From positions 496,001 to 560,000 of the forward strand of contig NZ_CANLNE010000001.1 in NCBI RefSeq assembly GCF_947492555.1: 64,000 nt of DNA, in the 5' to 3' direction. Origin of the DNA: an uncultured Roseobacter sp. (GTDB lineage: Bacteria; Pseudomonadota; Alphaproteobacteria; Rhodobacterales; Rhodobacteraceae). Below the pieces are notes generated by a model that saw only the letters and a program-made list of their open reading frames with translations, was not told the DNA's origin and did no database searches. Made by a program: the position numbers and the translations under genes. Positions 1 through 12,471 of the stretch are shown piece by piece; position 1 is the first letter of the stretch, and each line of letters begins with the position of its first letter.

Positions 1-40
1 TGCAATCTCTCGTTCTCGCCAACCTGTTGGAAAGAAAATC

Positions 41-1831
41 TTGGCTGATACTGCAAACAAACCCGGGTCACGCGAAACCTTGAAACGTCGTCTGGTGGCG
101 ATCGTCTTTGCTGATGTGGCGAACTTCAGCACGATGATGAGCGTGGATGAGGTCAAGACGACGATCTCGGTCACCAACCGGCTGGAAAAGTTTCGCGATG
201 TCATCACGTCCTACTCGGGTGAGTTCAAAGGCTCTGCGGGCGACAATGCCTTCATGGTTTTCGAAAGCGCCGTGGACGCGGTGACCTTTGCGGTAGAAAT
301 GCAAAAGACGCTGGAAGAAGAGAACAGCGGGCTGCCGGAAGAAGAACAGATCCACTTCCGCTTTGGCATCAACCTCGGCGAGATCCTGATCAGCGGCAAC
401 GAAATCACCGGCGAGAGCATCAACATCGCCGCGCGCATCGAAGCCTTTGCGGCGCCGGGACAGGTCTGCATTTCAGGCGCGGCCTATGATCACGTCTGTA
501 CCAAGCTGAAATACGGCTACGAATACCTTGGCGGTCAGGACTTCAAGAACATTGGCCGGACCATCGATGTGTTCCAGGTGCACGAGAACCCGACCACGGC
601 TGCGATGACGCCGGGGCTGCGCCGCAATCTGGAGAACTCCGCCGAGTTCAAGGAGCGCCCGGTCGCCAACCAATCCATCGTTGTCCTGCCCTTTGGGTTC
701 CAGGGCAGTGACCAGGGGGACCAGTGGTTTGCCGAAGGTCTGACCGAGGACGTGACAACCAACCTGTCGCGCTTTCAGGAGTTCTTTGTCATCGCGCGCG
801 GATCGGCCAATATGTTTGCGGATCGCACCAAGTCGCCGGCGCAGGCCGCGCGGGAACTTGGCGTGCGCTATGCGGTCGACGGCACGGTGCGCAAGGCTGG
901 CAAACGTATCCGGATCACGCTGCAGCTGCTGGATGCGCTGCAGGATCGCACCATCTGGGGTGAACAGTACAACCGCGATATCGAGGATATCTTCGATTTG
1001 CAGGACGAGATCACGCAGATCATCGTCTCCGCGACAGCAGCCCGGATCGAGGCCACAGAGCGGGACCGCATGCGCCTGTTGCCCCCTGCCAATCTCATGG
1101 CCTACGGGTTCGTGCTCAAAGGTCACAGGCATGTGCTCAAATACACCCAGCCGGAAGTGAAACAGGCGCGCCATCTCTATGAAGATGCCATTGGCAGCGA
1201 TGCACGCTACGCGCGGGCCTATGCAGCCAAATCCCGGACCTTCAATCTGGATTGGCGGTATGATTGGGCAGAGCAGCCGGATCTTGCGCTGGACGATGCA
1301 TTGAGTTTCGCCCGCGAAGCGATTGATCTGGACGAAGCGGACGCCCGTGGTTTCGGAGAGCTTGGGTTTGCCCATCTCTACCGCAAGGAGCATGATCCGG
1401 CAATCAACGCCTATGATCGCGCGCTCAAGCTCAATCCAAACGACGCCGACCTGATGTCGGACATGGCCGACGCACTGGCTCACATGGGCCGGTCAGAGGA
1501 GGCGGTGGAGCTTTTGCAGAAAGCCATGCGACTCAACCCGTTCTATCCGGATCAATACATCTGGCACCTTGGCGGCGCCTACTTCAACCTGCAGCGCTAC
1601 GAAGATGCGATCAACACTATCCAGAAAATGCAGAACCCGACCGAAGGACGCCGCATCCTTGCCGCCAGCTATGCCCATCTTGGGCGCACCAAGGAAGCAC
1701 GCGCGCAAGCAGATCTCGTACGTGAAGCGCATCCAAATTTTTCTGTGGAACGTTGGGCAGCCGTCCAGCCCGACAAGTTCGAGGAAGATGTTCAGCACTT
1801 CCTCGATGGCATGAAGCGCGCGGGCCTCTGA
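41..1831 (+). CDS. Class III nucleotide cyclase with TPR tail
   Basis: Predicted adenylate/guanylate cyclase, making cyclic nucleotide from ATP or GTP in the cytosol. The cyclase homology domain spans about residues 15-180. Both metal-binding Asp motifs are visible (FADVANFS at 23-30, GDNAFMVF at 67-74), followed by a NIAARIEAFA helix. A TolB/FlgO-like segment beginning SIVVLPF lies near residue 213, and TPR-type helices fill roughly residues 400-560. This architecture is common in alphaproteobacteria. The start given is a TTG with a GGAAAG-like site upstream, but the frame stays open to the left edge, so the true start may lie outside the window. It converges on the repeat-protein gene that follows. 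Confidence 0.88.
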   Translation: MADTANKPGSRETLKRRLVAIVFADVANFSTMMSVDEVKTTISVTNRLEKFRDVITSYSGEFKGSAGDNAFMVFESAVDAVTFAVEMQKTLEEENSGLPEEEQIHFRFGINLGEILISGNEITGESINIAARIEAFAAPGQVCISGAAYDHVCTKLKYGYEYLGGQDFKNIGRTIDVFQVHENPTTAAMTPGLRRNLENSAEFKERPVANQSIVVLPFGFQGSDQGDQWFAEGLTEDVTTNLSRFQEFFVIARGSANMFADRTKSPAQAARELGVRYAVDGTVRKAGKRIRITLQLLDALQDRTIWGEQYNRDIEDIFDLQDEITQIIVSATAARIEATERDRMRLLPPANLMAYGFVLKGHRHVLKYTQPEVKQARHLYEDAIGSDARYARAYAAKSRTFNLDWRYDWAEQPDLALDDALSFAREAIDLDEADARGFGELGFAHLYRKEHDPAINAYDRALKLNPNDADLMSDMADALAHMGRSEEAVELLQKAMRLNPFYPDQYIWHLGGAYFNLQRYEDAINTIQKMQNPTEGRRILAASYAHLGRTKEARAQADLVREAHPNFSVERWAAVQPDKFEEDVQHFLDGMKRAGL

Positions 1832-1851: not shown

Positions 1852-2349
1852 TTAATCGCTGGCGTCGCCGCCGCGCGCACCGCTGATCCGGGCGCCGGAA
1901 ATACGTGCCCCCGAGACCCGTGCACCTGCCACGCGGGCACCGGACACCCGGGCACCCGATACACGCGCACCGGAAACGCCACTGACACCGTCAGCAGCCA
2001 TGGCTAGAAGCACATCCTCGAACTTACCCTGATCGACATCAAGCCGGATGGTGTCGTCGGATTGCTTCACGATCCAGGCCCGCAGGTCCGCATAGAACTT
2101 CTTGTCCCGCGGATTAGGTCCGGGCACCGGCACCTTGTCGGGGTCTTTGCTCTCGCCTTTCACCATGAAAAGAACAGGTGTCGGGATCTCAAAATAAGCG
2201 CCGTCGTAGCTGAACCCGTAAATGCGGGCAAACTGTCCATCCGCCTTGCTTAGCACCTGATTGTCGCGACTGGCGGACACCACCGCCAGATCGTCGACTT
2301 CCCGTCCGAACAACACGATAGATGCAGATGTATAAAGGGATTCTTTCAT
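1852..2349 (-). CDS. Putative multicore precursor with VSGAR repeats
   Basis: A 165-residue protein of no family I recognise. Residues 1-124 form a soluble, Cys-free, mixed-charge region with no signal peptide. Residues 125-159 are seven tandem five-residue units, [V/I][S/A]GAR, followed by GGDASD. The start ATG at 2349 has an AAGGA site 8 bases upstream; an in-frame Met 48 bases further upstream has no such site. It is last in a same-strand row behind ycaO, tfuA and a metallopeptidase. That context, and the repeated short tail behind a longer leader-like domain, suggest a ribosomal peptide precursor with repeated cores, as in the thiovarsolin precursor. A competing reading is a short pentapeptide-repeat tail (A-R-V-S-G register, about two coils). 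The function is inferred. Confidence 0.75.
   Translation of the reverse strand: MKESLYTSASIVLFGREVDDLAVVSASRDNQVLSKADGQFARIYGFSYDGAYFEIPTPVLFMVKGESKDPDKVPVPGPNPRDKKFYADLRAWIVKQSDDTIRLDVDQGKFEDVLLAMAADGVSGVSGARVSGARVSGARVAGARVSGARISGARISGARGGDASD
1873..1977 (-). repeat. Seven 15-bp coding repeats (VSGAR)
   Basis: 105 bp coding for VSGAR, VSGAR, VSGAR, VAGAR, VSGAR, ISGAR, ISGAR. The nucleotide copies differ mainly at synonymous sites: Ser is TCC, TCG or AGC, and Arg and Gly codons vary. The peptide is therefore conserved while the DNA is not. A degenerate GVSG precedes the first copy. Confidence 0.95.
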
Positions 2350-2423
2350 AATGTTTGTCCTTTCGTGAGGGAAATCCGCCCCCTCAGCCTTCAGCAATTA
2401 CAGTGTTAACCTATTCTGGTTTT

Positions 2424-3680
2424 TCAGTCCATCGGAAGCATCGTTCTGACCGAATTTGCATGGCTGTCTTTTCCGAGCGGTTCGAGCTGCGGACCCACCG
2501 CAACAAGCCCGATATCGCGCATTCTGAAATTACCGAGGATGAGCTTCTCGAACCGGCCGCCGGTGTGTGCGCGATCCACGTCGAGGAAGACCTCCGCAAC
2601 GTCGACGAAATTCAGGCCCTGCTCATCCAGCCGCTCCCAGGTATCGGCCAGGTAGGTGCCCATGATATCGCGCGCATCCAGCAGCGCCATCTTGAATTTG
2701 TCCGGGTTGGCGGCATAGGCCTCGTCGAAAAGCTCCTGCATCACCGGGGCGTAATTCGACGTGGCCAGCAACTCGTCCGACAGGTGCTCCATCTGCGGCG
2801 TGATCGCCCCGTAATCGAGCAGCATTTCGTGGAAGATATCTACCAGAATATCAAAGAACGCGCCTGTCAGCGGCTGCGACAGGTGGTGCTCCTTGACCCA
2901 GCCTTTGGCGAATTCGCCCAATCTCTTGTCATTGGCTGCGATCCTGATCTGTTTGTTTTCCGAGAGCTCAGCAACACGGTTGACCGCGTTCAGCATGTAG
3001 AGATTGCCACGCGTGTTCTCGAGCAGTCGATCGACCAATGAGTTGAAATGCAAAGAGGAAATCAGCGCAACGAGGTCGGCGGCGCTCTCGTGAAAGCCAA
3101 AGTATTCGCCGGTGACATTCTGCGGATCGGGCACGCCAACCTCGGAATAGATGATCGCATGGCCCACTTCGTGGGCGATCACATCAAAGTTCAGGCTGAA
3201 GGGACGCGTCTCGCCAGCGCTGCGGTCCACGCCCATTTCAATGAAACCGTAGCCCGAATAGGCATTCTCCAGTGAATGCAGAATCGTCAGCTCCTGCCGG
3301 TCATAGCTCGCCTCTCCCTGCCACGGGATTTCCCGGTCGAAATAGTCCTCCCAGATGTCCATGACAAAGCGCACGGTGCCAAAAAGATGCGCCGTCTCGA
3401 ACTGCGGCGTGCCCGGTTCCAGATAGTCGAAATGACCGTCGGCATCCGGCATCGCCGGGGCTTCGACCTTGCCGGTCCAGGGCGGCGCCGACGGGTCCGA
3501 CCCATCAGGCGAAATACCATAGGGTTCTGTCTTGCCAATCGGAAAGATGCTGTACATCCGGCGGTCTGATGGCCCCGGCCCGACCGTGCCCGGCGCCGAC
3601 GACACCTCGACCACCTCCGGTTCGGCATATTCGTCCAGAAACTGGGGCTGTGGGAACAGTTTAAACCGCGTTCCTTGCAT
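2424..3680 (-). CDS. Gluzincin-type zinc metallopeptidase, cytosolic
   Basis: A 418-residue protein with a zinc-peptidase core. HEVGH lies at 170-174 and HESAAD at 197-202, matching the HExxH plus downstream E (ExxxD) pattern of M4/thermolysin-like gluzincins; Glu198 would be the third zinc ligand. The preceding NAYSGYGFIEMG and LNFDVIAHE also resemble the M4 active-site surroundings. There is no signal peptide or obvious propeptide, unlike secreted M4 enzymes, so it probably acts inside the cell. AAGGTGAG upstream supports the ATG at 3680. It lies 72 bp after tfuA and 74 bp before the VSGAR-repeat gene on the same strand, which makes it a candidate precursor or leader peptidase. That role is inferred. 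Confidence 0.82.
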   Translation of the reverse strand: MQGTRFKLFPQPQFLDEYAEPEVVEVSSAPGTVGPGPSDRRMYSIFPIGKTEPYGISPDGSDPSAPPWTGKVEAPAMPDADGHFDYLEPGTPQFETAHLFGTVRFVMDIWEDYFDREIPWQGEASYDRQELTILHSLENAYSGYGFIEMGVDRSAGETRPFSLNFDVIAHEVGHAIIYSEVGVPDPQNVTGEYFGFHESAADLVALISSLHFNSLVDRLLENTRGNLYMLNAVNRVAELSENKQIRIAANDKRLGEFAKGWVKEHHLSQPLTGAFFDILVDIFHEMLLDYGAITPQMEHLSDELLATSNYAPVMQELFDEAYAANPDKFKMALLDARDIMGTYLADTWERLDEQGLNFVDVAEVFLDVDRAHTGGRFEKLILGNFRMRDIGLVAVGPQLEPLGKDSHANSVRTMLPMD

Positions 3681-3752
3681 GCACTCTCACCTTCAAACCG
3701 ACCACTTACATTCTATGGCTATCGCAATCGTATCGTTCAGTCCATCACTCGT

Positions 3753-4541
3753 CTAATCGTCGCGGAAAGACAGCCCGCCGGTCAATCGGTACCCGCCGTG
3801 GGTCGCTGCGCTTTCCTGTCGCGCGCGCTGCCGCCAGCTTTGCACCGCGTCGTGCCAAAGCGCCGTCTGCTCAAAATGAAAGGACGCGGAAGGGGGCCGA
3901 TGCGCTTCCTCGGCCATGTGGCGCAGGAGAAGCTGCGCATCCAGCCGCTTCTGATCCACCTCGTTTTGTGCGATCCACGTTTGCAACGTCGGCAGCGCCG
4001 TATCCCCCTGCCCCCCGGTCTCACCGGTCCGGAAAATGCTATCCCATGTGCGGGTCTTGTAGAACTCTGTCTTGGCGCGCGCGATCAGGGTTTCGGCTGT
4101 ATTGGACGAAACGACACCCGCCTCTTGTGCGGCCTTCAGCGTCGCCCGCACATTCACCATGGCAACGCTCAAACCGGGGTACCCAACCTCTGCCGGGCCA
4201 TGCAGCAGGGCAACCTCGTCATCGTCTTCCAGCACGTCATCGCGGTAGTCATCGTAGATGGCGCCAAGGCCGATCATACCAAAGGCATCCAGTTCCGCCG
4301 CCCGCAACGCCCCCATGCTGGAGGCCCCGTAAACTGCGATCCCTTGCGTCAGTGCCCAAAGAATTTCCTTATGCCATACAGCGGGCACGCCTTCGAAATA
4401 CCCGTCGATGATGCCAATGGCACGGGGGGTCTCCAACGTTGCCAGGTAAACATCCCCCTGCTGCGCGGGTGGCCGCAGGTCGAATGTATCAAGCACCTCT
4501 GCATCCGCGCCTGCCAGCGATGGACCTGCAAAAACGATCAT
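3753..4541 (-). CDS. tfuA: TfuA-like protein, YcaO partner
   Basis: A 262-residue TfuA-domain protein. Family hallmarks are clear: VFAGPSL near the N-terminus, IIDGYFE at 44-50, VWHKEILWAL at 55-64, GASSMGALRAAEL at 72-84, and the acidic DDDEVALLHG segment followed by AMVNVRATL. TfuA proteins partner a subset of YcaO enzymes and are thought to support thioamide formation by delivering sulfur; the name comes from the trifolitoxin locus. Its ATG overlaps the ycaO stop by 4 bp (ATGA), indicating translational coupling. The C-terminal 100 residues are less conserved-looking and helical. Confidence 0.93.
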   Translation of the reverse strand: MIVFAGPSLAGADAEVLDTFDLRPPAQQGDVYLATLETPRAIGIIDGYFEGVPAVWHKEILWALTQGIAVYGASSMGALRAAELDAFGMIGLGAIYDDYRDDVLEDDDEVALLHGPAEVGYPGLSVAMVNVRATLKAAQEAGVVSSNTAETLIARAKTEFYKTRTWDSIFRTGETGGQGDTALPTLQTWIAQNEVDQKRLDAQLLLRHMAEEAHRPPSASFHFEQTALWHDAVQSWRQRARQESAATHGGYRLTGGLSFRDD

Positions 4542-5767
4542 GACCCTGCGCTTTCGCTTTGCGCCTGCACAGCGCGCGGGCCGGCCACATAGGCCACGTC
4601 ATCATGCGGCGCCTCAAGACCGGGGATGACTACGCGCACCACGGGTATTTCAAAATCCGAATGCGTCAGATCGACAACCGCAATCTCTTCGATCCCGGCC
4701 CCTTTCAGGCGGTTTTTCAACCACGCAAGGTCCTCGCCCAGCGTCCGATTGGTCGCCCCTGCGACCTGATCGAAGCGGCGTTCACCCGTGGAACCGACCA
4801 GCAGATCTTCAAAGGCCTGCGCCTTCGCCTGCCGTCCCTCGGCGCTGTATTCGTCATGAAACAGATCCTCGCGTGCGCCGGAGATGTAGTTCAACCGGGT
4901 CTGCGCCGCTTCGTTCAGCGCGCGGTGCAGGGCAATTGTCGGGTCCGGATGGGTGCCGGAGCCGAGGCCCAGATGATCCGCCTGCGCGCCGGGATCAAAG
5001 ACGATGCTCAGAAAGCTCGGCACCCCGGTATCGCAGGTCACATCCCAGATGGCACAGTCCAGCCCAGCGCGTCTGAACTTGCCCAGCGACGCCTGCAAGG
5101 CGGCATCCTCAATCGATCCCGGATCGAGCCGACTGTCGCGTTGCGCTTCGATGGGCCGTGCGTGCCAGATGGCCAACGCGTCCCGCTCCGCCACTTCGCA
5201 AATGCCATGGCAGACGGCCTCAAGCAGGTGATTGCCGGAGGCAAGGCCGTTTGTGCTGGCAGGATAGCGCCCGGCTTCGGGCGACACCGGGTGCGTGTAA
5301 TCCGCATGCACCATCTCGAAGGGTACCAGCTTGTCTTGCCCGTTCAGGATGTCAAAGGCCGTAACCCAATGCTGCCGTTCCGTGCGATGCGGGCGCGGGT
5401 GCGGCGTCTGCGGCAACCGGTCGAGATCAACAAAACGGTGCCGCGCCTCCAGATCGGCGATGCTGGCGTAGAACACCGGCGTGTCGATGCGCTCCGCGTG
5501 CCAGATTTCTATCGCTTCCATCAACGCTGAGGCCTTGGCATGCGCCAGCGTCATCCCCTTGCCCTGCGAGATCGCGATGGACCGCGCGTTGGGCCGCACG
5601 GCGATAACCACCGGCAGACCCACGCTGTCGAGCCCGGTCACATTTGCCAGCCGGGTGATGCCGAACTTGTGCTTGAGCGGCAGGATGCGCGCCAGGGTGT
5701 CGCTCGCCGCGCAGATGCGCTGCGATCCTTTGAGGAATTGCTTTTCGACATGCGCCGTCAGGTCCAT
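4538..5767 (-). CDS. ycaO: YcaO-domain ATP-dependent cyclodehydratase/thioamidase
   Basis: A 409-residue YcaO protein. ATP/Mg-binding motifs are present: SALMEAIE at 80-87 (SxxxExxE) and ICEVAERDA around 190-197 (ExxER). The IPVVRVVIPGLE segment near the C-terminus is typical of TfuA-linked YcaOs. There is no proline-rich azoline-type C-terminus. YcaO enzymes phosphorylate backbone amides to make azolines, thioamides or amidines; with TfuA next door, peptide backbone thioamidation is the best inference. I place the start at ATG 5767 because homology begins there and the 68 codons further upstream look like leader DNA. It is first gene of the set and is divergent from the cupin gene, with 175 bp between them. 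Confidence 0.93.
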   Translation of the reverse strand: MDLTAHVEKQFLKGSQRICAASDTLARILPLKHKFGITRLANVTGLDSVGLPVVIAVRPNARSIAISQGKGMTLAHAKASALMEAIEIWHAERIDTPVFYASIADLEARHRFVDLDRLPQTPHPRPHRTERQHWVTAFDILNGQDKLVPFEMVHADYTHPVSPEAGRYPASTNGLASGNHLLEAVCHGICEVAERDALAIWHARPIEAQRDSRLDPGSIEDAALQASLGKFRRAGLDCAIWDVTCDTGVPSFLSIVFDPGAQADHLGLGSGTHPDPTIALHRALNEAAQTRLNYISGAREDLFHDEYSAEGRQAKAQAFEDLLVGSTGERRFDQVAGATNRTLGEDLAWLKNRLKGAGIEEIAVVDLTHSDFEIPVVRVVIPGLEAPHDDVAYVAGPRAVQAQSESAGS

Positions 5768-5942: not shown

Positions 5943-6992
5943 ATGAGCCTAAACGACGCCTCTGAAAACACGCAGGCCCGTCAGCAGTTCTATGACGCGA
6001 TCGAGCCGGAATCGATGCGCGCACTCTGGTCGGTCATGGCGGACATCATCACGCCGGAGCCTAAATCGGACTGCATCCCGTTCAAATGGCGCTACAGCTC
6101 CGTTCGTGCGCGGCTGCTGGAGGCGGCAGAGCTGATCACGGCAAAAGAGGCGGAAAGACGTGTGCTGATCCTCGAAAACCCGGGGCTGGCGGGCAGTTCC
6201 AAGGTCACGACAAGCCTCTATTGCGGCGTGCAATGCGTGATGCCGGGGGAAGTCGCCCCGGCGCATCGTCACACGCAATCCGCCTTGCGGTTCGTGCTGG
6301 AAAGCGCGGGGGGCTTTACGGCGGTGGGCGGCGAGAAAACCGAGATGTCTTTTGGCGACTTTGTCATCACGCCAAACTGGGCATGGCACGACCACGGCAA
6401 CGACACCAATGAACCGATTTTCTGGCTCGACGGGCTGGATATTCCGGTGGTGCAGTTCTTCGACGCCTCCTTTGCCGAAGGGCTGGGCGAGAATCAGCAG
6501 CCGATCACCAGGCCCACGGGCGATAGCACGGCCCGCTACGGCGCCAACATGCTGCCGCTGGGCTATGCACAGCACACACCGACCTCTCCGATCTTCAACT
6601 ATCCTTACGCCCGCTCCCGCGACGCGCTTGAGCAGATGCGCAAATACGACGAATGGGATCCCTGCCACGGGCTGCGCATGCGCTACATCAACCCTGTCGA
6701 TGGCGGTTGGGCGATGCCGACAATCGGCACCTGTCTGCAACTGATGCCCAAGGGCTTTCAGAGTGCGCCGTATAAATCCACCGATGCGACCGTCTATGTC
6801 GGGGTGGAGGGGCGCGGACGCCTGCGTGTCCGAGACGAGGTGATCGACTGGGGCCCGAGGGATGTCGTTGTCGTCCCCTCCTGGCATGAAATCACCCATG
6901 AGACGGCGGAGGATGCGGTGCTGTTTTCCTATTCGGACCGGCCCATTCAGGAGAAACTGGGGCTCTTCCGCGAGCACCGCGGAAACGCCTAG
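5943..6992 (+). CDS. Gentisate 1,2-dioxygenase-like bicupin
   Basis: A 349-residue two-cupin protein resembling gentisate (or 1-hydroxy-2-naphthoate) 1,2-dioxygenase, which opens the aromatic ring of gentisate using Fe(II) and O2. The N-terminal cupin carries AHRHTQSALRFVLE and WAWHDHGN, giving the iron-binding histidines. The second cupin (about 255-340) keeps the fold but has fewer His. The start ATG at 5943 has AAAGGA upstream. No maleylpyruvate isomerase or hydrolase gene is adjacent, so pathway membership is not shown. It is divergent from ycaO and upstream of the lacI-type gene, from which it is separated by 189 bp. Confidence 0.82.
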   Translation: MSLNDASENTQARQQFYDAIEPESMRALWSVMADIITPEPKSDCIPFKWRYSSVRARLLEAAELITAKEAERRVLILENPGLAGSSKVTTSLYCGVQCVMPGEVAPAHRHTQSALRFVLESAGGFTAVGGEKTEMSFGDFVITPNWAWHDHGNDTNEPIFWLDGLDIPVVQFFDASFAEGLGENQQPITRPTGDSTARYGANMLPLGYAQHTPTSPIFNYPYARSRDALEQMRKYDEWDPCHGLRMRYINPVDGGWAMPTIGTCLQLMPKGFQSAPYKSTDATVYVGVEGRGRLRVRDEVIDWGPRDVVVVPSWHEITHETAEDAVLFSYSDRPIQEKLGLFREHRGNA

Positions 6993-9746: not shown

Positions 9747-10610
9747 ATGGCCACCAAAGCCTCCCGATCAGCCGCCCGCGTGATGATGGCGCCCGCCGTT
9801 GTGCTCTTGCTGGGCTGGATGCTGGTGCCCCTGATCATGACCCTGTGGTTTTCGTTCCGCACCTACCTGCCTCTGCGCGGCGGGGATCAGGGCTGGACCG
9901 GTTTTGACAACTACGTCCGCTTTGTCACCTCCAGCTCGTTCTGGCCCGCAATTTCGACCACGCTGGTCCTGCTGATCGGCGTTCTGACCATCACCATCGT
10001 CTTCGGCATCCTGCTGGCGATCCTTCTGGATCAGCCCATGTGGGGGCAAGGAGTGGTCCGCATCCTCGTCATCGCCCCCTTCTTCGTGATGCCCACGGTC
10101 TCCGCGCTGGTGTGGAAGAATATCTTCATGGACCCGACGAACGGCCTGCTGGCCCATTTATGGCGATTCTTCGGGGCCGAGTCGGTCAGTTGGCTCTCAG
10201 ACGCCCCCATGGTGTCGCTGATCATGATCGTCAGCTGGCAGTGGCTGCCCTTTGCAACGCTGATCCTGCTGACGGCAATCCAGTCGCTCGACGGCGAGCA
10301 GATGGAAGCGGCAGAGATGGACGGGGCCTCGGTGCTGTCGCGGTTCTTCTACATCGCCCTGCCCCACCTCAGCCGTGCGATCACCATCGTGATCCTGATC
10401 CAGACCATTTTCCTGCTGGCCATCTTTGCAGAGATCTTTGTGACAACGGGCGGCGCTTTCGGCACCCGGACCCTGTCCTACCTGATCTTCCAGCGCGTGC
10501 TTGAGAGCCAGAACATAGGGCTCGGGTCCGCGGGCGGGGTCTATGCGATCATTCTCGCCAATATCGTTGCCATCTTCCTGATGCGCATCGTTGGCAAGAA
10601 CCTCGACTAA
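9747..10610 (+). CDS. smoF: Polyol ABC transporter, permease 1
   Basis: A 287-residue inner-membrane permease of the MalF/UgpA type. About six hydrophobic helices are visible, starting with VMMAPAVVLLLGWMLVPLIM. The cytoplasmic EAA loop that contacts the ATPase is seen as EQMEAAEMDGASVLSRFFY near residues 185-203. The start ATG at 9747 follows GAGGAGA. It forms the membrane channel with SmoG for the SmoE-delivered polyol. Confidence 0.92.
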   Translation: MATKASRSAARVMMAPAVVLLLGWMLVPLIMTLWFSFRTYLPLRGGDQGWTGFDNYVRFVTSSSFWPAISTTLVLLIGVLTITIVFGILLAILLDQPMWGQGVVRILVIAPFFVMPTVSALVWKNIFMDPTNGLLAHLWRFFGAESVSWLSDAPMVSLIMIVSWQWLPFATLILLTAIQSLDGEQMEAAEMDGASVLSRFFYIALPHLSRAITIVILIQTIFLLAIFAEIFVTTGGAFGTRTLSYLIFQRVLESQNIGLGSAGGVYAIILANIVAIFLMRIVGKNLD

Positions 10611-10628
10611 ACAAGGGAGGACGACGTC

Positions 10629-11459
10629 ATGGCACGTGCTGTCACAAACCAACGCAAGATGATCAACACCGGTGCTGCGTGGATCATCGGTCTGCTGATC
10701 TTCTTCCCGATCCTGTGGACGATCCTGACCAGCTTCAAAAGCGAGGCGCAGGCCATCGCCGATCCGCCGATCTTCCTGTTCTTTGACTGGACGACCGAGA
10801 ACTACTCGACGGTCATGGAGCGGTCGAACTATGGCCGGTTCCTGTGGAACTCCATCTTCATCGCCGGGGGCTCGACCATCCTGGGGATCATCATCGCGGT
10901 GCCAGCGGCCTGGAGCATGGCCTTCGTGCCCTCTAAGCGCACCAAGGACATCCTGCTCTGGATGCTGTCCACGAAGATGTTGCCGGCAGTGGGCGTGCTC
11001 TATCCGATCTACCTGCTGTTCATCCAGTTTGGCCTGCTCGACAATGTTTACGGGCTGACCTTCGTGCTGATGCTGATCAACCTGCCGATCATCGTGTGGA
11101 TGCTGTACACTTATTTCCGCGAAATTCCGGGCGAGATCCTGGAGGCAGCACGGATGGACGGCGCTACCTTGCGCGACGAAATTCTCTATGTGCTGACGCC
11201 GATGGCCATTCCCGGCATCGCCTCCACGCTTCTCTTGAACTTCATTCTGGCATGGAACGAAGCCTTCTGGACGCTCAACCTGACCGCCGCCAAGGCAGCG
11301 CCGCTCACGGCGTTCATCGCCAGCTATTCCAGCCCTGAAGGCCTCTTTTATGCCAAGCTCTCCGCTGCCTCGACGATGGCCATTGCGCCCATCCTCATCC
11401 TCGGCTGGTTCAGCCAGAAACAACTCGTCCGCGGCCTCACCTTCGGCGCAGTCAAATAA
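10629..11459 (+). CDS. smoG: Polyol ABC transporter, permease 2
   Basis: A 276-residue MalG-type permease with six predicted helices and the EAA loop [19 protein letters not shown]. It begins 18 bp after smoF behind AGGGAGGACG. It pairs with SmoF in the inner membrane. The C-terminal sequence [13 protein letters not shown] is typical of this subunit class. Confidence 0.92.
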
Positions 11460-11470
11460 GGAACGATACC

Positions 11471-12471
<1,001 letters not shown>

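What the first reader, a model, noticed from the sequence alone, without database searches (positions are those of the whole stretch)
1852..5767. Possible new YcaO/TfuA peptide-modification locus with a multicore precursor
Seen: four same-strand genes, ycaO and tfuA coupled by ATGA, then a cytosolic HExxH peptidase and a 165-residue protein ending in seven [V/I][S/A]GAR units and GGDASD. Known: YcaO-TfuA pairs introduce thioamides into ribosomal peptides, and the thiovarsolin precursor has repeated short cores. Inferred: the tail is a set of modified cores, one Arg-ended unit each, with a peptidase for release. The long 124-residue front domain and the peptidase differ from described loci known to me.
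Basis: partly seen in the sequence, partly recalled or inferred. Interest (0 to 1): 0.88.

Follow-up and report, generated by a model that had tools for sequence, protein, structure and literature searches.

The report
Cyclase-linked YcaO/TfuA repeat-peptide cassette
A mobile set of bacterial genes appears to make many copies of a very short peptide from one protein tail, probably modify its backbone, cut it out, and link it to a cyclic-nucleotide enzyme; the gene set is real and inherited as a unit, while the chemistry and the signalling role are still inferred.

Summary
In detail: ycaO, tfuA, an HExxH peptidase and a 165-residue protein ending in seven [V/I][S/A]GAR units lie on the minus strand at 5767-1852. 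The unit is larger: the convergent class III cyclase (41-1831) and, just upstream of it, a GNAT acetyltransferase ending at 48 belong to it. In 19 genomes of the genus, cyclase, TfuA, peptidase and tail protein occur in the same 12 and are missing from the same 7. In a class sample of 385 genomes, all 8 with a strong peptidase match have tfuA beside it. Cassettes have crossed families, and the cyclase follows cassette type, not species. The leader is conserved while tails differ: VSGAR, AYSGGK, RSSGG, LSRSGG, AVMASR, DLVGRS, MNVG or unrepeated. Between the window's units 64 codon differences are synonymous, 16 not. Best reading: a multicore RiPP-like precursor, thioamidated by YcaO-TfuA, cut by a thermolysin-like peptidase, perhaps N-acetylated, with the cyclase as receptor or output. 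Thioamidation, cleavage, acetylation and sensing are inferred. Against a YcaO-centred view, one Rhizobium clade keeps cyclase, peptidase and repeat tail but lacks ycaO/tfuA. New variant of a known kind.

The parts
1..48 (+). last 16 codons (stop included) of a GNAT acetyltransferase gene whose body lies upstream of the window (L021:5428-6048), overlapping the cyclase start
   Evidence: homologous GNAT upstream of the cyclase in 10 of 10 VSGAR/VSGAK cassettes of the genus; Pfam Acetyltransf_3 in the 6 homologues scanned of 15; the window's own copy was placed by profile, not scanned with Pfam
41..1831 (+). class III nucleotidyl cyclase with C-terminal TPR repeats, convergent with the operon; the open frame continues upstream of the window edge, so the true start may lie outside
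   Evidence: Pfam Guanylate_cyc 6.5e-9 and TPR_2 2e-14; solved relative 3MR7 aligned over residues 14-179; present or absent together with TfuA and peptidase in 19 of 19 genus genomes
1852..2349 (-). 165-aa putative multicore precursor: leader domain (residues 1-124), seven [V/I][S/A]GAR units (125-159), cap GGDASD
   Evidence: no Pfam or NCBIfam family over cut-off
1873..1977 (-). DNA of the seven 15-bp core units
   Evidence: from the translation; TRF arrays 1916-1974 and 1874-1974
2424..3680 (-). 418-aa metallopeptidase, thermolysin-like motif HExxH ... ExxxD, no signal peptide seen by eye
   Evidence: H170, E171, H174, E198 and D202 invariant in 12 aligned homologues; weak Peptidase_M4 match 0.044, below cut-off
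3753..4541 (-). TfuA
   Evidence: Pfam TfuA 1e-47; solved TfuA-domain protein 6XP8, E 6e-36
4538..5767 (-). YcaO, ATGA-overlapped with tfuA
   Evidence: Pfam YcaO 2.7e-80; solved MJ1094 6PE3, E 2e-32

Best explanation
The window holds a horizontally mobile cassette: YcaO, TfuA, a gluzincin-type peptidase and a precursor on one strand, facing a cyclase and a GNAT acetyltransferase on the other. The 165-aa protein is a multicore precursor: a conserved leader domain of about 120 residues is recognised by the enzymes, and the tail is a string of short cores. YcaO activates backbone amides with ATP and with TfuA probably turns one amide per unit into a thioamide; by analogy with thiovarsolin (thioamide between Pro and Arg of APR) I guess the Ala-Arg bond. 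The cytosolic thermolysin-like peptidase then cuts before the hydrophobic residue (R|V, R|I) and releases up to seven copies of a pentapeptide, whose new N-terminus the GNAT may acetylate (thiovarsolins are N-acetylated). With no signal peptide seen on precursor or peptidase and no exporter noticed among recurrent neighbours, the product may act inside the cell; the linked TPR cyclase is its likely receptor or output. Shown: gene content, co-inheritance, constraint on the tail. Inferred: modification, cleavage, acetylation, sensing.
For: Co-inheritance: tail protein, TfuA, peptidase and cyclase (E up to 1e-100) occur in the same 12 of 19 genus genomes and are not found in the same 7; ycaO is adjacent in all 12 loci fetched. 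Class sample: TfuA in 21 of 385 genomes, strong peptidase in 8, all 8 next to tfuA, Fisher 1.8e-11 with three weak partial matches counted as negative; Rhizobiaceae: 11 of 13 peptidase genomes, Fisher 3.6e-6. Cassette, not species, sets the type: G015/G008, same genus as the window, have cyclase 37% identical to the window's but 60% to Rhizobiaceae G736, which shares their AYSGGK tail; G766/G769 (Rhizobiaceae) have VSGAR tails and cyclase 63-64% to the window. Pairwise distances of the five proteins correlate, r 0.84-0.945 over 18 loci. A GNAT gene sits beside the cyclase in 18 of 19 such loci, and thiovarsolins are N-acetylated. Leader conserved, tails diverse. Strong amino-acid constraint on units. 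Thiovarsolin has repeated short Arg-ended cores with thioamides.
Against: No chemistry or product data. The Rhizobium LSRSGG/RSSGG clade (5 loci, one clade, support 100/100) keeps cyclase, peptidase and repeat tail without ycaO/tfuA and without the GNAT, so the repeats have a use without these enzymes. Within the genus cyclase (84-92%) and peptidase (82-84%) are more conserved than YcaO (58-73%) and TfuA (53-61%) (eight VSGAR/VSGAK loci against the window). The peptidase reaches no Pfam cut-off and both structure models failed. Type II cassettes have one unrepeated tail, so multicopy is not essential. Three type II tail proteins (L060, L095, L096) do not reach significance against the type I leader profile. 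The cyclase could simply regulate the cluster.
Confidence: 0.6

Rival explanations
1. Protein modification without release: YcaO-TfuA thioamidates the tail of a lasting protein (as in McrA or ribosomal uL16), and the peptidase is a partner or trimmer; the tail is a modified binding surface, for instance for the cyclase's TPR domain.
For: The front part is a conserved domain of about 120 residues, unlike a short leader; the closest curated models are the McrA-thioglycine YcaO and TfuA, though below cut-off; the trio cyclase-peptidase-tail persists without YcaO.
Against: Tails of different cassettes share no common length, period or sequence, as expected of cores; a peptidase gene lies between tfuA and the tail gene.
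Confidence: 0.18
2. YcaO-TfuA acts on something else (cyclase, peptidase or an unseen peptide) and the repeat protein is only the substrate or inhibitor of the peptidase.
For: Absence of ycaO/tfuA in one clade leaves repeat tail, peptidase and cyclase intact; in G267 TfuA, peptidase and tail are together while the only YcaO match of the genome is on another contig.
Against: Adjacency and tight co-inheritance in most other genomes; distances of tail protein and YcaO correlate, r 0.89; three YcaO-TfuA loci without the peptidase also have a repeat protein next to ycaO (L064, L071, L072).
Confidence: 0.15
3. The tail is an ordinary pentapeptide-repeat (right-handed beta-helix) segment and the neighbourhood is incidental.
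For: Register A-R-V-S-G resembles A[D/N]LxG (recalled consensus); weak Pfam Pentapeptide match E 0.011.
Against: 15.7 bits against a cut-off of 20.2; homologous proteins carry units of four, six or seven residues or none in the same place, so five-residue periodicity is not the shared property; co-inheritance is not incidental.
Confidence: 0.04

Closest known systems
Thiovarsolin cluster varAYTO (Streptomyces varsoviensis; PMC6511847, passages and section 19 seen)
   Same: YcaO and TfuA with a precursor of repeated short Arg-ended cores; varA, varY and varT suffice for thioamidated tripeptides; products are N-acetylated (there put down to a host enzyme)
   Different: cores APR, not VSGAR; the genes described are a heme-oxygenase-like protein, ATP-grasp ligase, amidinotransferase and MFS transporter, not a metallopeptidase, cyclase and GNAT; 'cyclase' and 'Proteobacteria' have no occurrence in its main text
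TfuA-related clusters mined across bacteria (Malit et al. 2021, PMC8120280; abstract and two of three parts of the results read)
   Same: proteobacterial TfuA-YcaO clusters, over 500 in Rhizobium, very likely include loci of this kind
   Different: main text has no 'cyclase' and one 'peptidase' passage, a prolyl endopeptidase; no multicore leader family or cyclase link in the parts I read; supplements not seen
Trifolitoxin (Rhizobium; tfuA implicated, PMC4603692 passages)
   Same: an alphaproteobacterial peptide whose production involves TfuA
   Different: its precursor and genes were not compared here; that paper calls the substrates of TfuA-associated YcaOs unknown
McrA-glycine thioamidation YcaO/TfuA of archaea
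   Same: closest curated family models for both enzymes
   Different: below the curated cut-offs; substrate there is an enzyme subunit
RRNPP peptide signalling (Rap/PlcR; recalled)
   Same: short intracellular peptides read by TPR proteins would be the same logic
   Different: no homology tested; output here would be a cyclase; analogy only

Membership tests
YcaO-TfuA thioamidated RiPP cluster | adjacent ycaO and tfuA genes of intact length | tested here: met
   overlap ATGA 4538-4541; full-length Pfam matches
YcaO-TfuA thioamidated RiPP cluster | neighbouring precursor with conserved leader and variable core | tested here: met
   homologues share the front domain while tails differ
YcaO-TfuA thioamidated RiPP cluster | thioamide in the product | not testable with these tools
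   needs mass spectrometry
Thiovarsolin family | heme-oxygenase-like gene and APR/GPR cores | tested here: not met
   cores are VSGAR; the operon is bounded by the cyclase and a gentisate dioxygenase; VarA itself was not held for comparison, and the wider flanks were not scanned for heme oxygenase
McrA-glycine thioamidation proteins (TIGR03266, NF033432) | score over the curated cut-off | tested here: not met
   YcaO 232.9 of 365 bits, TfuA 207.5 of 235.2 bits
Pentapeptide repeat protein (PF00805) | score over the gathering cut-off; five-residue period kept in homologues | tested here: not met
   15.7 of 20.2 bits; other periods in homologues
Peptidase family M4 | score over the Pfam cut-off | tested here: not met
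   14.7 of 22.4 bits; HExxH and a downstream E conserved, so thermolysin-like by motif only
Pycsar defence (PycC cyclase) | PycC-type cyclase with effector | tested here: not met
   only weak cyclase-domain similarity, about 22 bits; no PADLOC match at E 0.01 for the other four window proteins
Class III nucleotidyl cyclase | Guanylate_cyc domain over cut-off | tested here: met
   36.1 bits, cut-off 21.9; activity not testable here

The most novel reading that the evidence does not exclude
A self-contained intracellular peptide-signalling module: a multicopy, backbone-thioamidated, possibly N-acetylated pentapeptide is cut from a folded carrier and read by a TPR or STAND-type nucleotidyl cyclase, so that a RiPP controls a cyclic-nucleotide second messenger. 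Core sequence and cyclase diverge together, giving private 'codes' (VSGAR, AYSGGK, RSSGG, AVMASR, DLVGRS) that spread between bacterial families as cassettes.
Probability: 0.25. Interest if true: 0.93.

Novelty: new variant of a known kind. Interest (0 to 1): 0.78.

Why it matters
Proteobacterial YcaO-TfuA loci are numerous, but in the papers I saw the only product tied to TfuA there is trifolitoxin, and the known thioamidated RiPPs made by the pair are said to come from Actinobacteria (PMC8120280). This cassette gives a defined substrate candidate, a candidate maturation peptidase, an acetyltransferase and a linked cyclase, so the questions 'what do they modify' and 'what is it for' become testable in ordinary marine and soil bacteria. 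A peptide-modification pathway inherited together with a class III cyclase would be a new link between RiPPs and second messengers.

Tried and rejected
Profile search of the PDB gave nothing useful for the peptidase (best 8prs, E 0.011) and one hit of the tail profile to a designed repeat protein (7ue2, E 2.8e-5, no single stretch passing), taken as compositional.

Dropped from counts: weak partial peptidase matches G218, G180, G318 in the class sample (E 1e-12 to 1e-20, no cassette in the fetched regions) and G684 in the phylum sample; tail matches in G050 and G035, taken as low-complexity without further test; a 70-residue frame in L017 with a YcaO match of E 4e-4, taken as noise. Defence (PADLOC) was considered and set aside. 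A Nostoc plasmid has the peptidase beside a radical SAM and two ferritin-like proteins with no tail homologue found: not counted as a cassette. A search for VSGAR in papers listed noise. Searches for TfuA with metallopeptidase, with Alphaproteobacteria, repeat and core peptide and for YcaO with tetratricopeptide and cyclic nucleotide returned no paper; TfuA with adenylate cyclase returned two, one of which (PMC8939145, passages) names adenylate cyclases, YcaO and TfuA near one branch of graspetide clusters: a different context, but it shows that a cyclase near YcaO/TfuA has been seen. The promoter and terminator scan gave nothing over shuffles.

The tail protein of G245 had been assigned by place only; one search gives it E 6e-4 against the leader profile (scaled to 100,000 sequences).
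Full report
OBSERVATION. The four genes are exactly as described. On the minus strand lie ycaO (5767-4538), tfuA (4541-3753, overlapping ycaO by ATGA), an HExxH peptidase (3680-2424) and a 165-residue protein (2349-1852). Gaps are 72 bp (tfuA-peptidase) and 74 bp (peptidase-tail gene); the tail gene ends 20 bp from the end of a convergent gene, 41-1831 on the plus strand. Pfam gives YcaO 2.7e-80 and TfuA 1e-47; the peptidase and the repeat protein reach no family. The nearest solved structures are TfuA-domain protein 6XP8 (E 6e-36), YcaO MJ1094 6PE3 (E 2e-32) and, for the cyclase domain, 3MR7 (E 3e-24).

THE REPEAT IS UNDER SELECTION. The window gene has seven units; over the 21 pairs of units 64 codon differences are synonymous and 16 are not. 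Across 12 homologous genes (the window, eight of its genus, G188, and Rhizobiaceae G766 and G769) 88 units were cut out with the pattern [VIMLA][SAG][GA][ATN][RKN], and 73 read [V/I/L]SGAR. The pattern limits the letters a unit may have, so this fraction is an upper view; units that break it (such as the last of G766) are left out. The leaders of the same 12 proteins average 56% pairwise identity, range 41-82%. Synonymous differences between units exceed the others in all 12 genes; G016 (55:36) and G012 (44:33) are the weakest and G188 (84:0) the strongest.

THE CASSETTE. Searching 19 genomes of the genus separately for the cyclase (E up to 1e-100), TfuA and the peptidase profile gives the same 12 positive and the same 7 negative genomes; the tail protein was found in the same 12. 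In the 12 fetched loci the genes, ycaO included, lie together; ycaO was not searched for in the 7 negative genomes. Two of the 12, G015 and G008, carry a different version: tail AYSGGK, TfuA with an extra C-terminal part, and cyclase only 37% identical to the window's. Their cyclase is 60% identical to that of G736, a Rhizobiaceae genome with the same AYSGGK tail. Conversely Rhizobiaceae G766 and G769 have VSGAR tails and cyclase 63-64% identical to the window's. The cyclase therefore travels with the cassette. Pairwise distances of the five proteins correlate with r from 0.84 to 0.945 over 18 loci (Mantel p 0.0001 each); shared ancestry contributes, but the cross-family cases cannot be explained by species descent. 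In a tree of 53 YcaO proteins the label 'with peptidase' (36) or without (17) needs 4 changes, against 14.6 in shuffles; near-copies add to that contrast.

A SIXTH GENE. Clustering the unlabelled frames of 43 cassette loci showed one further recurrent gene: a GNAT acetyltransferase read in the direction of the cyclase and directly upstream of it in 15 loci (L021-L030, L045, L083, L089, L090, L092; Pfam Acetyltransf_3 in the 6 of 15 scanned). L031, L032 and L086, the AYSGGK loci, have a different GNAT directly after the cyclase. Of 19 loci with TPR cyclase plus ycaO, 18 thus have a GNAT; L047 has none found, and neither have the YcaO-less loci. In the genus the first GNAT is beside the cyclase in 10 of 10 VSGAR/VSGAK cassettes; G015 has a copy on another contig, G008 and the 7 cassette-less genomes none. 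In the window only its last 48 bases are visible. Thiovarsolins are N-acetylated peptides, so acetylation of the released peptide is an obvious guess. The gentisate dioxygenase beside ycaO is found in 2 of 43 loci, the window's and its near twin G002. LacI-type regulators (10 loci) and sugar-importer-like ABC permeases (7 loci: L017-L019, L021-L024) also recur, at varying places; among the 22 largest clusters I saw no exporter by eye.

HOW COMMON. In a sample of 385 genomes of the class the peptidase profile hit 11, of which 8 strongly (E below 1e-100); the other 3 are partial and without cassette. TfuA occurs in 21 of the same 385 genomes, 25 loci. All 8 strong peptidases are next to tfuA (Fisher 1.8e-11); ycaO is adjacent in 7 of 8, the exception G267 having its only YcaO match on another contig; a tail protein is beside the peptidase in 7 of 8, the exception G105 being cut by a contig end. 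In 121 Rhizobiaceae genomes the peptidase is in 13 and TfuA in 31; 11 of 13 are adjacent. In a 299-genome phylum sample the only hit outside the class was weak. In plasmid records the peptidase is in 132 records, 118 of them Rhizobium; I opened six of these hits: five from Hyphomicrobiales, each with AAA-cyclase, YcaO, TfuA, peptidase and tail, and one Nostoc without.

TWO TYPES AND MANY TAILS. Type I has a TPR cyclase, usually convergent, and repeated tails: VSGAR/VSGAK, AYSGGK, RSSGG, LSRSGG. Related loci G245, G389 and G267 have AVMASR, DLVGRS and MNVG repeats, the first two with an AAA-type cyclase upstream and the last with no cyclase found; G182 has a TPR cyclase and an Arg-rich tail without clear units. 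Type II has a cyclase-AAA_16 protein upstream on the same strand and one unrepeated tail, for example ...PGKRSPTMYASRMMMGHRGGRL. A profile of 22 type I leaders with the repeats cut off (E scaled to 100,000 sequences) finds the leaders of L047, L050 and L051 (E below 1e-20), L033 (8e-13), eleven other type II leaders (7e-9 to 4e-4, L049 of the repeat kind at 6e-4 among them), but not L060, L095 and L096 (0.14 to 0.76), which are tied to the family only through L057 (BLAST).

RESULTS AGAINST A SIMPLE READING. The repeat protein hit 49 plasmid records, 47 of them Rhizobium. I opened four: all have cyclase, peptidase and an SRSGG-repeat tail, and none has ycaO or tfuA within about 9 kb. Genome G724 is of this kind and has no TfuA and no YcaO match anywhere, at 88% completeness. 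These five peptidases form one clade (100/100) inside type I (the tree has no outgroup), so a single loss is the simplest account. G773, also without TfuA or YcaO, is a fragment at a contig edge. Hence repeats, peptidase and cyclase form a core that can do without YcaO-TfuA, and thioamidation may be an enhancement. In line with this, cyclase and peptidase are better conserved within the genus than YcaO and TfuA.

A WIDER LINK TO CYCLASES. Of the 25 TfuA loci of the class sample, 13 have a Guanylate_cyc protein within 6 kb; with 225 such domains in 95 Mb of these 21 genomes about 3% would be expected per locus (P 4e-14 if loci were independent, which they are not quite; G188 by BLAST to the window's cyclase). 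Seven of the 13 have no peptidase. Of the remaining 12 loci, two have a Ser/Thr kinase-AAA_16 protein (L066, L069) and three a BTAD-TPR protein (L073, L075, L077) nearby; the other seven (L046, cut by a contig end, L050, L061, L070, L071, L072, L074) gave no BLAST match to the reference cyclases in the fetched stretch and were not scanned with Pfam. So signal-transduction proteins with TPR or AAA_16 modules are a recurrent neighbour of YcaO-TfuA in this class. Whether they sense the peptide or merely regulate the cluster is open.

MECHANISM. Most likely: leader-guided modification of each unit by YcaO-TfuA (inferred from the family; thiovarsolin shows the reaction on Arg-ended repeated cores, PMC6511847, passages and section 19), then release by the cytosolic gluzincin, then perhaps N-acetylation. 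Thermolysin-like enzymes prefer a hydrophobic residue after the cut (recalled), which fits R|V and R|I here. Neither precursor nor peptidase shows a signal peptide by eye, so an intracellular role is more likely than a secreted antibiotic; exporters elsewhere in the genomes were not tested. The cyclase's TPR region is a plausible peptide reader. Steps shown: gene set, linkage, constraint. Steps inferred: thioamide, cleavage site, acetylation, receptor.

NOVELTY. The main text of the global TfuA survey (PMC8120280) has no occurrence of 'cyclase' and one passage with 'peptidase', a prolyl endopeptidase; I read its abstract and parts 1 and 2 of 3 of its results and no supplements. Its Rhizobium clusters very likely include some of these loci. 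A graspetide survey (PMC8939145, passages) mentions adenylate cyclases together with YcaO and TfuA near one ATP-grasp branch. My paper searches listed no paper whose title or shown abstract describes a cyclase- and metallopeptidase-linked YcaO-TfuA cassette with this leader family; the library lacks most subscription papers. I class it as a new variant of a known kind.

Noticed in passing
L064:7847-8800 (-), beside ycaO-tfuA and a cyclase-AAA_16 gene: 317-aa protein with 20 AGRWA[V/I][T/S]P-type units directly upstream of ycaO: another multicore precursor candidate, without the peptidase.
   Followed up: partly
L071:7755-8153 and L072:7746-8183 (-): Small proteins with two and three [G/A]GKQRFA units directly upstream of ycaO-tfuA in two genomes of another family: a further multicore precursor candidate.
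   Followed up: partly
L074:8737-10113 (-) and 10466-11728 (-): Two proteins with a Nif11-like front (my reading by eye) and long low-complexity repeats next to a YcaO-TfuA pair.
   Followed up: no
L066:541-4146 and L069:8233-11784: Ser/Thr kinase-AAA_16 proteins beside peptidase-less YcaO-TfuA loci, where other loci have cyclases.
   Followed up: partly
L073, L075, L077: Conserved set: BTAD-TPR protein, a 136-aa protein, a divergent YcaO clade, TfuA and a protein of about 365-371 aa.
   Followed up: no
L055:5965-12154 (Nostoc plasmid): The same peptidase family beside a radical SAM enzyme and two ferritin-like proteins, without YcaO: possibly the peptidase with another modification set.
   Followed up: no
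L017:9600-9932, L018:9618-9998, L019:9616-9954, L020:9591-9917: YcaO-less Rhizobium cassettes carry a further small protein of 108-126 aa after the tail gene; the one scanned (L019) has no Pfam match.
   Followed up: partly
G015:C3:697650-698261: An orphan copy of the VSGAR-type GNAT (75% identical) in a genome whose cassette is of the AYSGGK type: perhaps a remnant of an exchanged cassette.
   Followed up: no
window 5943-6992 (+): Gentisate 1,2-dioxygenase (NCBIfam over cut-off) divergent from ycaO, followed by what read like a LacI-type regulator and sugar ABC transporter genes; found beside the cassette in only 2 of 43 loci, so ordinary metabolism.
   Followed up: yes
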